The notes beneath the pieces are model-generated. The model searched no databases. It was not told the DNA's origin and was given only the letters and a program-made list of their open reading frames with translations. Shown piece after piece: positions 60,230-64,000 of a stretch of 64,000 bases of DNA (within the stretch, counting starts at the first letter, position 1; each line of letters opens with the position of its first letter). Position numbers and translations under genes: made by a program. Source of the DNA: Streptomyces sp. NBC_00425 (GTDB lineage Bacteria > Actinomycetota > Actinomycetes > Streptomycetales > Streptomycetaceae); NCBI RefSeq assembly GCF_036030735.1, contig NZ_CP107928.1, positions 1,054,001 through 1,118,000 on the forward strand. Direction: 5' to 3'.

Positions 60230-60859
60230 CTAGTCGCCCGGCTGTTCCCCCGGTGTCTGCGGCGACGTCGAGGCGTGGTCCGGCGAGGCCGCCAGCCGGG
60301 GCAGGACGAAGGTCCACAGCTGTGTCACGCGCTCCACGGAGAGCACCTCACGGTCCGCCGCTCCCATCACCTCGAAGCCCGCCGTCGCGGCCACGATCAC
60401 GGTCGTGGCGACGTCGGCCGGGACGTCCCGCGCGAGCTCCCCGTCGCGCTGTGCCTGTACGACGAGCTCGTGCACCCACGCCTGCCACCAGCGCAGCAGC
60501 CGCGTCCCATCCTTGCGCGAGGGGTCACCGCTCAGCCGGAACCCCGCCCGGATCACGGGGTCGGCGACCACCGCCAGCAGCAGTCCGCAGGCCGTGTGCA
60601 CGAGCGACTGCAGCAGTGTGTCCGCCCGGCTGCGGCATCGTTCGGCGAGGCGCTGTGCACCGTCCGCCGCCGCCCTCTCCACCTCCGCCGCCAGATCGTG
60701 CTTGCTGGCGAAGTGGAAGTGCAGGGCGCCGTTGCTCACCCCCGCCCGTTCGCTGATGACCGGAAGGGACGCCCCGGCGTATCCCTCGGCGGCGAACACC
60801 TCGGCCGCCGCCCGGACAAGGGCCTGGCGGGTGCGGACCGCCCGTGCCTGCTTGACCAT
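60230..60859 (-). CDS. TetR-family regulator, gamma-butyrolactone/butenolide receptor-like (1)
   Basis: A 209-residue ScbR/ArpA-type TetR protein. The helix-turn-helix (residues 8-60) reads RAVRTRQALVRAAAEVFAAE, then RAGVSNGALHFHFASKHDLA, the hallmark of autoregulator receptors. The C-terminal half would bind a butyrolactone or butenolide. GGGGAGGAA precedes ATG 60859. An ARE-like box at 60953-60973 lies upstream, implying autoregulation. By position it corresponds to AvaR2 of the avenolide locus; whether it binds ligand or is a pseudo-receptor cannot be read from sequence. Confidence 0.85.
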   Translation of the reverse strand: MVKQARAVRTRQALVRAAAEVFAAEGYAGASLPVISERAGVSNGALHFHFASKHDLAAEVERAAADGAQRLAERCRSRADTLLQSLVHTACGLLLAVVADPVIRAGFRLSGDPSRKDGTRLLRWWQAWVHELVVQAQRDGELARDVPADVATTVIVAATAGFEVMGAADREVLSVERVTQLWTFVLPRLAASPDHASTSPQTPGEQPGD

Positions 60860-60952
60860 CAGGTCTTCCTCCCCAGCCTGCGCGGACGGCCAAGAGCCGC
60901 GTCCTGCGTCCGGCGGAACGGGGAGAGCATCCCACCGCGGCGGCGCCGAAGT

Positions 60953-60973
60953 AAACCGCGCGCTCGGTATCTT
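60953..60973. promoter_or_regulatory. ARE-like operator 1
   Basis: Read on the minus strand, AAGATACCGAGCGCGCGGTTT matches the autoregulatory elements bound by butyrolactone-type receptors. It shares AAGATAC, GA and GGTTT at identical spacing with the box at 63508-63532. It lies 94 bases upstream of the TetR gene at 60859. Confidence 0.6.
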
Positions 60974-61026
60974 CGGCTCGCGCCCGTTGCCCTTCGGCCG
61001 CCGTGGGCGGAGGAACGTTGTCCGGT

Positions 61027-62262
61027 TCAGGTCTGGACCGCAGCGAGCCGGACGGGAAGCGTCCGGTAACTGTTCATCAGGAAGCTGGGCAACGGCAGGA
61101 GTTCTTCCGGTGCACAGGCGAGTTCCATGCGGGGGAAGCGCTCGAAGAGCGCGGCGAACGCGCTCTCCGCCTCCACTGCGGCCAGCGGCGCTCCGAGGCA
61201 GCGGTGCGGCCCGTGGCCGAAGCCGAGGCCGTCGCGGTCCTTGCGCAGCACGTCGAACCGCTCGGCGTGCGGCCCGTAGCGTTGCGGATCCCGGCCCCCC
61301 GCCGCGAAGTTGACGAGGATGGCCTCGCCCTTGCGGATCAGCACGCCGTCCAGATCGATGTCCTCGACGGCGAACCTCATGGGCGAGTAGGCCCCGGGGG
61401 TGTGGACCCGCATCGTCTCGGCGGCCACGTCCTGCCAGGTCGCGCGCCCGGCCCGGACGTGCTCGAGCTGCTCGGGCCGTCGCAGCAGCGCGCCGACCGC
61501 GTTGGTGATCAGGGCGGCCGTGGTGTCCTGCCCTCCGGCGATCATGAGGAACAGGGTGCCCAGCAGTTCCTCCTCGGTGAGCCGGTCCTCCTGGTCACGT
61601 GCCTGGATCAGCAGCGACGTGAGGTCGTCCCCCGGCTCGGCCCGCTTGGCCTTCACCAGGTCCGACAGCCGGACGAAGGCCTCCAGACGGGCCGCCTCGA
61701 TCTCCCGGCCGCTGATCGTCGTCCCGAACACCGTGTGCAGGGCCGCGCACAGGGCGTCGGTGGCCTCGCCCTGGGCCACCCCGAACAGTTCGCAGATCAC
61801 CCGCATCGGCAGCAGCTCCGCGAACGAGGCCCGCAGGTCCACGGGTTCTTCCGGCCTGCTCACCGCGAGCCCGTCGACGAGTTCGGCCGCGATCTGCGCC
61901 ACCCGTGGCCGCATCGCCTCCGAACGCCGCGCGGTGAACGCCCCCGCCACCAGCCTGCGCAGCCGGGTGTGCGACTCGCCGTAGGCGAAGAGCATGTTCT
62001 CGTTGATCACCCAGGGGTAGAGCGGCCACTCCTCGGTGATGCGCCCCTCGATCAGCTCCGGCCAGTGCCGGCGTGCGTCCTTCGACACCCGGGGATCGGT
62101 CAGCAGCCGCTCCACCTCGCGCTGCCGCAGCACCGCCCACGCGATCACGCCTCCCGGCAACTCCACCCGCACGGCGGGCCCTTGGGCCCGGAGCATCGCC
62201 GCCTCGCCCGCGAGATCGCGCCCGGTCACGTCCAGGGCGTAGGGGCAGGTTGTCGTATCCAT
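61027..62262 (-). CDS. Cytochrome P450, avenolide Cyp17-like by context
   Basis: A 411-residue soluble bacterial P450. The I-helix motif is AGGQDTT, the K-helix ExxR is ETMR and the heme loop [11 protein letters not shown] gives Cys355 as iron ligand. It would need separate ferredoxin and reductase. In S. avermitilis a P450 (Cyp17) beside avaR1 and an acyl-CoA oxidase acts in avenolide formation, and gene order here is the same. A GGGAG site precedes ATG 62262. The assignment to hormone synthesis is by context; the P450 call itself is certain. Confidence 0.93.
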
Positions 62263-62565
62263 CGTCGAACTCCCAGGGTCGGTCCTGCAGTCGGCCTGCG
62301 CACCGGTCGGGAGGAGGGGGCGTTCCCCGCCTCCCGGCCGAGGACGCGCAACCACGCCCCCGGACAACCGTTCGCCCCGGACCCCTCCCCCTGCCGCCCC
62401 GCCCTCAACCACCGCCCCGCACGCGCCTGCCGCCCCACGCGTACGCCGGGGCCGGCCCGTGCCCGGTCGCCGCCTCACACACCCCCGCGCGGGCCGGGGC
62501 CGCGAGCCGCCCGGCGACCCCCGCCCGCGCCGCGGGACGGCCCTCGCCGGACGAGGCCCCGCCGC

Positions 62566-63249
62566 TCATCCGGCGGCCCGGGGCGCTCCCGTCGGCCAGC
62601 TGGCCCTCACGGCCTCCTCGTACACCCGCGCGCCCCGGTCGGCCGCCGTGTCCAGCTGCAACAGCACGGCCGGCACCGCGACCCCGGCCAGCAGGTGCCG
62701 CTGAAGGTCCGCCACCCGCTCCGGCAGGTCCGCATGCCCCGTCATGATCTTGGACAGCACCTGGACCCCGGTGAAGGCCCCCACGAACATCCGCGCGGCG
62801 GCCGCCACATCGACGTGCGGAAGCAGTTCTCCGCGCTCCTTCGCCCGTCCCAGCAGGTCCGCGTTGTGCGCGATCCACCCGCTCATCGGCGCGCGCCGGT
62901 CCAGCCCGTCCGTCGGCGCCCCCTGGTCCACGGTCAGCCTGATGCTCCCCTGGACCAGCGGATCGCCCACCGACAGCAGATGGGCCAGGACGAACGCCTC
63001 GTCCAGCCCCTGCTGCAGCAGCAACTCCCGTGCGGGCACGGCCGGGACGGTCTCCAGCTGGCCGGCCAGCACGGCCTGCGCCAGCTCCTCCTTGGAGGAG
63101 AAGTGGAAGTAGAGCGCCCCCTTGGTCACACCGGCCCGGGCGAGGATCTCCGCGATCGTCGCAGCCTCGTACCCCACCTCGGCGAACACCGCCGCGGCCG
63201 CGACGAGGACGGCCCGCCTCGTCCGGACGGCCCGTTCCTGCAGCGCCAC
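62566..63249 (-). CDS. TetR-family regulator, gamma-butyrolactone/butenolide receptor-like (2)
   Basis: A 227-residue ScbR/ArpA-type receptor. The DNA-binding domain reads RAVRTRRAVLVAAAAVFAEV, then ARAGVTKGALYFHFSSKEEL, very close to ScbR, ArpA and AvaR1. GTG 63249 follows GGAGG by six bases. It is divergent from the acyl-CoA oxidase gene, with two ARE-like boxes in the 340-base gap, and so should repress itself and the oxidase until hormone binds. It corresponds by position to AvaR1. Confidence 0.9.
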   Translation of the reverse strand: MALQERAVRTRRAVLVAAAAVFAEVGYEAATIAEILARAGVTKGALYFHFSSKEELAQAVLAGQLETVPAVPARELLLQQGLDEAFVLAHLLSVGDPLVQGSIRLTVDQGAPTDGLDRRAPMSGWIAHNADLLGRAKERGELLPHVDVAAAARMFVGAFTGVQVLSKIMTGHADLPERVADLQRHLLAGVAVPAVLLQLDTAADRGARVYEEAVRASWPTGAPRAAG

Positions 63250-63286
63250 GCCCCACCTCCGAGGTAGCTCCGGCGAATCCGGCTCG

Positions 63287-63306
63287 AAAATATACCGACA
63301 GGTCTG
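63287..63306. promoter_or_regulatory. ARE-like operator 2
   Basis: AAAATATACCGACAGGTCTG has a good left half (ATACCGAC) of an autoregulatory element and a degenerate right half. It lies 38 bases upstream of the TetR start at 63249, a natural autoregulation position. Confidence 0.5.
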
Positions 63307-63507
63307 ACTCCTGCCACCTCGACGCCGCATGTCCGCCATCGCACCGGCGACCTGTCCGGCTGCCGGTCGCCGCGGGCTTCCACGCCGCAATCGCCGGACC
63401 TCGGAAGTGAGTTCGCCGCACCCGTGCCGGGCGCGCGCCCGCCTCCCGGGCACCCCCCAAAACACGCCATCGGCGGCCGGTCGGATTGCCGGTTTCCGAC
63501 TTGATGA

Positions 63508-63532
63508 GAAAACCGGTAGGTCCGTATCTTTT
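63508..63532. promoter_or_regulatory. ARE-like operator 3, upstream of the acyl-CoA oxidase
   Basis: On the minus strand this reads AAGATACGGACCTACCGGTTTTC across its core, fitting autoregulatory elements (ATAC-GACC-CCGGT). It lies 58 bases before the oxidase start and closely matches ARE-like operator 1. Confidence 0.65.
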
Positions 63533-63589
63533 GGCGGACGGCGCAACCAGAGGTACCGGCGTGCGGATCCGCGACAACGGGGAGTGGTC

Positions 63590-64000
63590 ATGGCCCTTCT
63601 GGCATTCCACGGCGCGGAGCGCCCCGCCGGGCCGCACCGCAGCGGTCCTCGCTCCTTCGCCGACGCGGCCGACGGCCCTGCGGGAGGCGACACCGCGACC
63701 GTGCGCGAGCTGACCCGGCTGCTGTTCGACCAGGACGGCGAACGGGAGCGCGTCCACGCCCCGTGGCGCCGCCTCATCGCGAGGGACGACTTCCGTCACC
63801 GGCCCGGTCTCACCCCCGAGGAGCGGGCCGCGCAGTCCTACGCCTGGCTGCGTCTGGTCAACGACCTGCTGACCGACCCCGCGTCGCTCGCGACCGACCC
63901 GGCCCTCCTCACGGCGCTGCACGAGTGGGCCGCCATCGTGGACGGCGGCGGCGGCCTCACCACCGTCGCCAGCATCCACTACAACCTCTTTCTCGGCAGC
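63590..64000 (+). CDS. Acyl-CoA oxidase, N-terminal part (runs off the window)
   Basis: An open frame of 137 codons from ATG 63590 continues past the right edge. GGGGAG lies six bases upstream. Visible blocks include TVRELTRLLFDQDGERERVH, APWRRLIARDDFRHRPGLTP and TTVASIHYNLFLGS, the latter resembling the substrate-side region of acyl-CoA oxidases. In avenolide biosynthesis the oxidase Aco is essential and its gene is divergent from avaR1; this gene has the same position and orientation and its own ARE box. Only about a fifth to a quarter of the protein is present, so the family call needs the rest of the sequence. Confidence 0.75.
   Translation, partial: MALLAFHGAERPAGPHRSGPRSFADAADGPAGGDTATVRELTRLLFDQDGERERVHAPWRRLIARDDFRHRPGLTPEERAAQSYAWLRLVNDLLTDPASLATDPALLTALHEWAAIVDGGGGLTTVASIHYNLFLGS

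What the first reader, a model, noticed from the sequence alone, without database searches (positions are those of the whole stretch)
60230..64000. Probable avenolide-type butenolide hormone locus
Seen: TetR receptor, P450, TetR receptor and a divergent acyl-CoA oxidase N-terminus, in that order. Known: in S. avermitilis the avenolide genes aco and cyp17 sit with receptors avaR1 and avaR2, and no AfsA-type butenolide synthase is needed. Inference: this strain makes and senses an alkyl-butenolide, with a P450 that may set a different hydroxylation or keto pattern. A new hormone variant, and a silent antibiotic cluster under its control, could lie nearby.
Basis: partly seen in the sequence, partly recalled or inferred. 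Interest (0 to 1): 0.85.

Follow-up and report, generated by a model that had tools for sequence, protein, structure and literature searches.

The report
Avenolide-type Streptomyces hormone gene locus
This is a four-gene set by which a Streptomyces bacterium very probably makes and senses a butenolide hormone of the avenolide type; it is a clear new example of a well-described and common kind of locus, not a new kind.

Summary
The window ends inside an acyl-CoA oxidase gene; the own genome gives the rest (631 aa). On the other strand lie an AvaR1-type receptor (65% identical to AvaR1, lactone contacts kept), a P450 (63% to an S. avermitilis P450, inferred to be Cyp17) and a second ScbR-family regulator. 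Two corrections: the second regulator groups with an AvaR3-like S. avermitilis protein (AvaR2 could not be compared), and no PKS or NRPS core domain (E<=1e-20) was found within 229 kb. An operator (ARE) model built from relatives ranks the oxidase promoter and the second regulator's promoter first and second in the 9.8-Mb genome. A hormone-released, self-repressing circuit is well supported; the hormone is inferred. Such loci are common: 53 of 392 sampled genus genomes have an AvaR1-like receptor, and 46 of 52 fetched neighbourhoods also hold oxidase and P450 matches. Kapoor et al. 2020 listed about 90, including close relatives of this one. Open lead: the tail-contact residue 131 is Asn here, Thr in AvaR1, and tends to follow the P450 subclade.

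The parts
60230..60859 (-). ScbR-family TetR regulator of the AvaR3-like type (TetR1 in the report); lacks Gln64, Thr108, Thr162 and Gln165 of AvaR1, keeps Trp127 and Val158
   Evidence: NF041196 178 bits; side of a branch with 19 rows, support 100/100, with S. avermitilis P0271; residues from the alignment
60953..60970 (+). ARE-like operator about 93 bp before the TetR1 start codon; 17 of 18 to the published AvaR1 consensus
   Evidence: second-best hit of the ARE model in the whole genome, 14.6 bits, E 0.45
61027..62262 (-). Cytochrome P450, Cyp17-type, 411 aa; haem motif [11 protein letters not shown]-helix GGQDTT
   Evidence: PF00067 4e-31; 63% to P0148, labelled S. avermitilis; tree; motifs
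62566..63249 (-). Butenolide receptor of the AvaR1 type (TetR2 in the report), 227 aa
   Evidence: 295 bits to AvaR1 6wp7; 65% over AvaR1 residues 2-217; inside the AvaR1 group
63292..63309 (-). Weak ARE-like site before the receptor gene, 15 of 18; may well be chance
   Evidence: 147 of 310 shuffled intergenic regions of relatives had 15 as their best score
63510..63527 (+). ARE operator in the oxidase promoter, 62 bp before the ATG, 18 of 18 to the published AvaR1 consensus
   Evidence: one of 3 exact matches in the 9.8-Mb genome; best hit of the ARE model, 17.2 bits, E 0.06
63590..64000 (+). Acyl-CoA oxidase, Aco-type; the window holds the first 137 codons, the gene continues to genome position 1119485; Glu442 in TAEGDN lies beyond the window

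Best explanation
The locus is a self-contained butenolide signalling unit of the avenolide kind. Inferred chemistry: the acyl-CoA oxidase introduces the C2-C3 double bond of a branched acyl-CoA and the P450 oxidises the chain; lactonisation gives a 4-substituted butenolide with an oxidised alkyl tail. Inferred regulation: without hormone the AvaR1-type receptor sits on the ARE in the oxidase promoter and on the ARE before the second regulator, and represses both and perhaps its own gene with the P450 behind it; hormone binding releases it, which gives positive feedback. The second regulator is an AvaR3-type partner that probably does not bind the butenolide in the same way. Shown here: gene identity, order, tree placement, kept pocket residues, conserved operator-like sites. 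Not shown: transcription, product, binding.
For: Oxidase family match and Glu442 invariant in the 29 rows of alignment A1. Receptor 295 bits to AvaR1 and in its group; Gln64, Thr108, Trp127, Thr162 and Gln165, named by Kapoor 2020 (passages), are all kept. P450 63% to P0148, which lies in the tree with P450s beside AvaR1-like receptors. Full AvaR1 consensus in the oxidase promoter; the genome has 3 exact matches, the backwards pattern 0. A model from 64 operator-like sites of relatives ranks the two local promoters first and second in the genome. Of 62 receptor-bearing relatives, the best site between receptor and oxidase scores 18 in 44, 17 in 17 and 16 in 1; of 310 letter-shuffled gaps, 18 in 0, 17 in 6. 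Receptor, oxidase and P450 matches go together in 46 of 52 receptor-centred loci.
Against: The S. avermitilis Aco and AvaR2 sequences were not obtained, so those comparisons rest on synteny and relatives. Residue 131, which contacts the avenolide C10 hydroxyl, is Asn and not Thr. The site before the receptor gene itself is weak, 15 of 18. Model E-values are modest (0.06 and 0.45), and its training sites were picked by their fit to the published consensus. Eighteen of 80 oxidase relatives have no AvaR1-like receptor beside them, so the oxidase alone does not prove the system.
Confidence: 0.88

Rival explanations
1. The four genes are an avenolide-type locus by descent, but the strain uses them for a different butenolide: the Asn131 receptor and its P450 subclade make and read a tail oxidised differently from avenolide.
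For: Residue 131 is Asn in 36 of 62 relatives' receptors and Thr in 16. In the P450 tree the group of 29 rows that holds this P450 (SH-aLRT 92) has Asn in 28 and Asp in 1; of the 9 loci in the S. avermitilis group, 8 have Thr and 1 Asn. S. [quoted passage not shown]
Against: Linked genes share ancestry, so the association needs no functional link; the tree needs only 5 Thr/non-Thr changes. Asn can also make a hydrogen bond to a hydroxyl. Five Asn receptors lie outside the group of 29.
Confidence: 0.3
2. The receptor answers a gamma-butyrolactone made by the AfsA-type enzyme at 9.25 Mb, and the oxidase and P450 are ordinary lipid enzymes that happen to be neighbours.
For: The genome does hold an AfsA-family frame with two AfsA domain matches at 9245982-9246821, beside an ScbR-family receptor.
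Against: The AfsA gene has its own adjacent receptor; the receptor here falls in the AvaR1 group, not with that one, which however sits on a long branch; oxidase and P450 accompany such receptors in 46 of 52 loci and an operator match is in the oxidase promoter.
Confidence: 0.05
3. The locus is decayed and silent: once avenolide-type, no longer working.
For: No expression data; no target cluster found near it.
Against: All four frames are open with catalytic and ligand residues kept. In two other genomes (L184, L185) the receptor is 99% and the oxidase 92% identical in protein while the DNA is 91-94% identical, which fits purifying selection on the receptor.
Confidence: 0.05

Closest known systems
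Avenolide locus of Streptomyces avermitilis (avaR2 sav_3702, avaR3 sav_3703, cyp17 sav_3704, avaR1 sav_3705, aco sav_3706; PMC5744401, passages)
   Same: Receptor, P450 and oxidase neighbours in the same order by gene number; AvaR1-type ARE in the oxidase promoter; an AvaR3-like regulator next to the P450 gene
   Different: No third ScbR-family gene beside it; the AvaR3-type protein lacks the insert; receptor residue 131 is Asn; P450 63% identical to the S. avermitilis protein taken as Cyp17
Aco/AvaR1/Cyp loci listed by Kapoor et al. 2020 (PMC7347384, Appendix table 2), for example Streptomyces sp. yr375, LUP30 and S. rishiriensis
   Same: Matched by strain name to L031, L029 and L028: P450 87-88% and receptor 89-92% identical to this locus
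   Different: LUP30 and S. rishiriensis show no TetR1 match (75 bits or more) within 3 kb beyond the P450
ScyA1/ScyR1 of S. cyaneogriseus and SnbU/SpbR/SnbX of S. pristinaespiralis
   Same: Oxidase, P450 and receptor neighbours tied to control of an antibiotic (PMC7670052; PMC7554373; passages read)
   Different: SpbR and SnbU lie at the pristinamycin cluster; here no PKS or NRPS core domain was found near

Membership tests
Avenolide-type (Aco/AvaR1) butenolide system | Acyl-CoA oxidase gene divergent from an AvaR1-like receptor gene | tested here: met
Avenolide-type (Aco/AvaR1) butenolide system | Receptor in the AvaR1 group with Gln64, Thr108, Trp127, Thr162, Gln165 | tested here: met
   branch support 99/95 for the 26 rows with AvaR1, on a tree with 23 chosen loci of 80; residues
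Avenolide-type (Aco/AvaR1) butenolide system | Thr131 contacting the C10 hydroxyl, as in AvaR1 | tested here: not met
   Asn here and in 36 of 62 relatives' receptors; it varies within the family, so I take it as specificity and not as a membership feature
Avenolide-type (Aco/AvaR1) butenolide system | Cyp17-type P450 downstream of the receptor | tested here: met
   63% to P0148, labelled S. avermitilis; that P0148 is Cyp17 is inferred
Avenolide-type (Aco/AvaR1) butenolide system | ARE operator in the oxidase promoter | tested here: met
   sequence match 18 of 18; binding not tested
Avenolide-type (Aco/AvaR1) butenolide system | Direct alignment of the oxidase with S. avermitilis Aco | not tested
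   sequence not obtained; the oxidases beside receptors 85-88% identical to AvaR1 are 54-58% identical to this one
Avenolide-type (Aco/AvaR1) butenolide system | Production of an alkyl-butenolide that releases the receptor | not testable with these tools
   needs culture extracts and gel shifts
AvaR2 (pseudo-receptor) for the protein at 60230-60859 | Groups with AvaR2 | not tested
   AvaR2 sequence not obtained; it groups with AvaR3-like P0271, and AvaR2 could fall in the same group
AvaR3 for the protein at 60230-60859 | Groups with the S. avermitilis AvaR3-like protein and lies next to the P450 | tested here: met
   19 rows, 100/100; P0271 taken as AvaR3 from its insert and length, an inference
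AvaR3 for the protein at 60230-60859 | Extra 75-residue stretch | tested here: not met
   209 aa, no insert; the other TetR1-type rows are 201-236 aa, so it is called AvaR3-type and not AvaR3

The most novel reading that the evidence does not exclude
The avenolide-type loci fall into at least two chemical dialects, readable from the receptor's tail-contact residue 131 (Thr against Asn) together with the P450 subclade; this locus belongs to the Asn dialect, whose hormone would be a butenolide with a tail oxidation unlike avenolide and would not fully cross-talk with S. avermitilis.
Probability: 0.28. Interest if true: 0.5.

Novelty: new member of a known kind. Interest (0 to 1): 0.22.

Why it matters
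It adds a complete, intact example with predicted operators to a known hormone class that controls antibiotic production. The residue-131 and P450 subclade pattern, if it holds up in binding tests, would let the hormone's tail type be guessed from sequence; the papers seen here give structures for few of these loci.

Tried and rejected
Antibiotic cluster next door: searched the own genome at E<=1e-20 for ketosynthase (PF00109, 56 matches) and condensation (PF00668, 14 matches) domains; none within 229 kb. Terpene, RiPP and other cluster types were not searched for.

Genome-wide operator targets: the relaxed pattern AWWCCRNNNNNNNSGTWT gave 13 hits at 11 places against 1 for the backwards control. 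Besides the two local ones I looked at the surroundings of all nine others. Eight of nine overlap a frame chosen by my simple gene caller; two of these (5669714 and 9449048, the latter just before a TetR gene) are at or before a predicted gene start on the other reading, and one (7754819) is intergenic, so a few could be real sites. None is near a ketosynthase or condensation domain. I do not count them as targets. The model's third and fourth hits (12.4 and 10.9 bits, E 2.4 and 7.7) were not followed. That search scored only 150 of 9013 first-look candidates, so weak targets may be missed. A tighter 23-base pattern with up to 3 mismatches found only the oxidase promoter.

AvaR2 identity for the second receptor: set aside in favour of AvaR3-type, on the tree and on P0271; not excluded, since AvaR2 was not compared.

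S. avermitilis genome: looked for a receptor identical to AvaR1 in 392 and 296 genomes, partly the same ones; best 88%. P450 and AvaR3-like proteins labelled S. avermitilis came instead from protein searches. One search was translated in a wrong frame and not used. One search's count of loci with TetR1 (39) used too narrow a distance; (41) replaces it. In one search the gene picked as TetR1 in L038 is really a second AvaR1-type receptor; a TetR1-like gene lies further on. One search's script stopped on an error after building a tree; one search replaces it.
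Full report
What is there. The window is G000:C1:1054001-1118000 of a 9,805,310-base single-contig genome. At its right end lie TetR1 (60230-60859, -), a P450 (61027-62262, -), TetR2 (62566-63249, -) and the start of an acyl-CoA oxidase (ATG at 63590, +). The rest of the oxidase was taken from the own genome: 631 residues to position 1119485, with Pfam ACOX_C_alpha1 and ACOX, no NCBIfam family, and chains named acyl-CoA oxidase as best solved relatives (96 bits and below). Glu442 in TAEGDN aligns with the EGDN stretch of 1w07 and is invariant in the 29 rows of A1, ours included; that it is the catalytic base is recalled knowledge. 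The P450 keeps the haem loop [10 protein letters not shown] and the GGQDTT helix motif.

The receptor. TetR2 scores 295 bits against crystallised AvaR1 (6wp7) and 290 against 5xaz, deposited as a gamma-butyrolactone receptor protein. It is 65% identical to AvaR1 over residues 2-217. In a tree of 47 rows, made from 23 chosen loci of the 80 plus references, it lies with AvaR1 among 26 rows (support 99/95); the receptor beside this genome's AfsA gene and a CprB-like protein at 2.71 Mb lie outside, on long branches whose places are unsure. Gln64, Thr108, Trp127, Thr162 and Gln165, named by Kapoor et al. 2020 (PMC7347384: outline and abstract; passages; sections 10 and 30 read; the paper also writes Thr161 and Thr107 in places), are all kept; Thr131, said to bind the C10 hydroxyl, is Asn. 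Across 62 receptors of relatives, position 131 is Asn in 36, Thr 16, Ser 6, Gly 2, Asp 1, Val 1, while Gln64, Thr108, Trp127 and Gln165 never vary and Thr162 varies in 2.

The second regulator. TetR1 lies among 19 rows (100/100) with P0271, a 281-residue protein labelled S. avermitilis. P0271 carries a long internal insert; PMC5744401 and PMC6930871 (passages) say AvaR3 has an extra 75-residue stretch and that AvaR2 is a pseudo-receptor. So P0271 is probably AvaR3, and TetR1 is AvaR3-type without the insert. It has Ala, Ser, Trp, Val, Thr, Ala and Glu at positions 64, 108, 127, 158, 161, 162 and 165, so it probably does not bind the lactone as AvaR1 does. AvaR2 could not be compared.

The P450. 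Two S. avermitilis P450s (P0148, P0149) came up as relatives of the P450 from S. glomeratus L063, whose receptor is 88% AvaR1. This locus's P450 is 63% identical to P0148. In a tree of 58 P450s the group of 29 that holds it (SH-aLRT 92, short search) has Asn131 receptors in 28 rows and Asp in 1. Of the 9 loci grouped with the S. avermitilis P450s, 8 have Thr and 1 Asn. P0148 was given Thr by me, from AvaR1; five Asn rows lie outside the group of 29. Least number of Thr/non-Thr changes: 5. Shared ancestry explains this as well as function does.

The operators. The published AvaR1 consensus AWWCCRBBHDDNMSGTWT (PMC5744401) matches 18 of 18 at 63510-63527, 62 bp before the oxidase ATG, and 17 of 18 at 60953-60970, about 93 bp before TetR1; 6 places in the 64-kb window reach 16 or more. 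The whole genome has 3 exact matches, this being one; the backwards control has 0. In relatives, the best site in the receptor-oxidase gap scores 18 in 44 of 62, 17 in 17 and 16 in 1; of 310 letter-shuffled gaps, 18 in 0 and 17 in 6. The best site is not always the one next to the oxidase. Before genes picked as TetR1, 32 of 40 have 17 or more; of 200 shuffled, 1 (one short gap left out, three gaps over 2 kb kept, and L038 is the misassigned case). A sequence-only model of 64 distinct sites scoring 17 or more (37 from oxidase gaps, 27 from TetR1 gaps) ranks the oxidase promoter (17.2 bits, E 0.06) and the TetR1 promoter (14.6 bits, E 0.45) first and second in this genome; the next are 12.4 and 10.9 bits. 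This genome's sites were not in the training set, but near-identical ones from yr375 were, and the sites had been picked by the published consensus.

How common it is. An oxidase search of named genomes kept the best 80 of 276 relatives: 62 have an AvaR1-like receptor, 55 also the P450, 41 also a gene picked as TetR1, 18 no receptor; some misses are contig ends. On the oxidase tree (FastTree) the 63 receptor-linked rows, ours included, need 3 changes against a shuffled mean of 16.5. A receptor search of 392 genus genomes gave 53 genomes, ours included, at 256 bits or more, then a drop to 210 (counted by eye from its list). For the other 52, one neighbourhood each was fetched: 46 have receptor, oxidase and P450 matches and 36 also a TetR1 match. 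This count asks only for presence in the stretch: in L159, L160 and L175 the oxidase match is partial, and in L161 the P450 lies apart on the other strand. Oxidase relatives also lie on 47 plasmid records.

What is known. The avenolide genes are described in PMC5744401 and PMC6930871 (passages); Kapoor 2020 mined about 90 loci by this synteny and lists yr375, LUP30 and S. rishiriensis, which are near relatives of this locus. S. albus makes a related butenolide (PMC5575351, sections 8 and 10 read). The proposed oxidase step is as cited in PMC7554373 (passages). The listings of my three paper searches showed no title on a residue-131 pattern, but I made no search for it by name, so I do not claim it is unpublished.

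What is not there. The nearest NRPS condensation domain ends at 884718, about 229 kb left of TetR1; the nearest ketosynthase to the right starts at 1503155, about 384 kb away. To the right of the oxidase lie an oxidoreductase-like gene and a short gene, shared at least in part with the relatives compared, then genes that look by eye like glycosidases and sugar transport; these were not run against a family library.

Verdict. A genuine, intact avenolide-type locus: a new member of a known kind, with low surprise. The open part is whether the Asn131 group uses a different hormone.

Noticed in passing
G000:C1:9245114-9246821 (L016, L011-L012): An AfsA-family frame with two AfsA domain matches beside its own ScbR-family receptor: this genome also seems to have a separate AfsA-type hormone system.
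   Followed up: partly
G000:C1:2711793-2712362 (L017): A CprB-like receptor of the ScbR family; the CprB likeness is judged by eye from the alignment text.
   Followed up: partly
G000:C1:56408-133711 and 9671603-9748905: Ketosynthase matches with equal scores appear at both chromosome ends in opposite orientation, as if a PKS cluster lies inside a long terminal inverted repeat.
   Followed up: no
G000:C1:2841899-2841916 (L137): An ARE-like site matching the relaxed pattern on both strands, within the predicted 5' part of a 901-aa frame next to an enoyl-CoA hydratase-like gene; may be chance.
   Followed up: partly
plasmid records H1-H20 and others: Oxidase relatives occur on 47 plasmid records, 41 with at least 80% of the protein covered, 40 of the 47 Streptomyces; the contigs of L163, L164 and L188 have lengths equal or close to such plasmids.
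   Followed up: no
L038 and L176 (L038 is S. echinatus): Two AvaR1-type receptors flank the P450 in one locus, a possible duplicated sensor.
   Followed up: no
L159, L160, L175: Only part of the oxidase matches, about 1 kb from the receptor; possibly a decayed or diverged oxidase.
   Followed up: no
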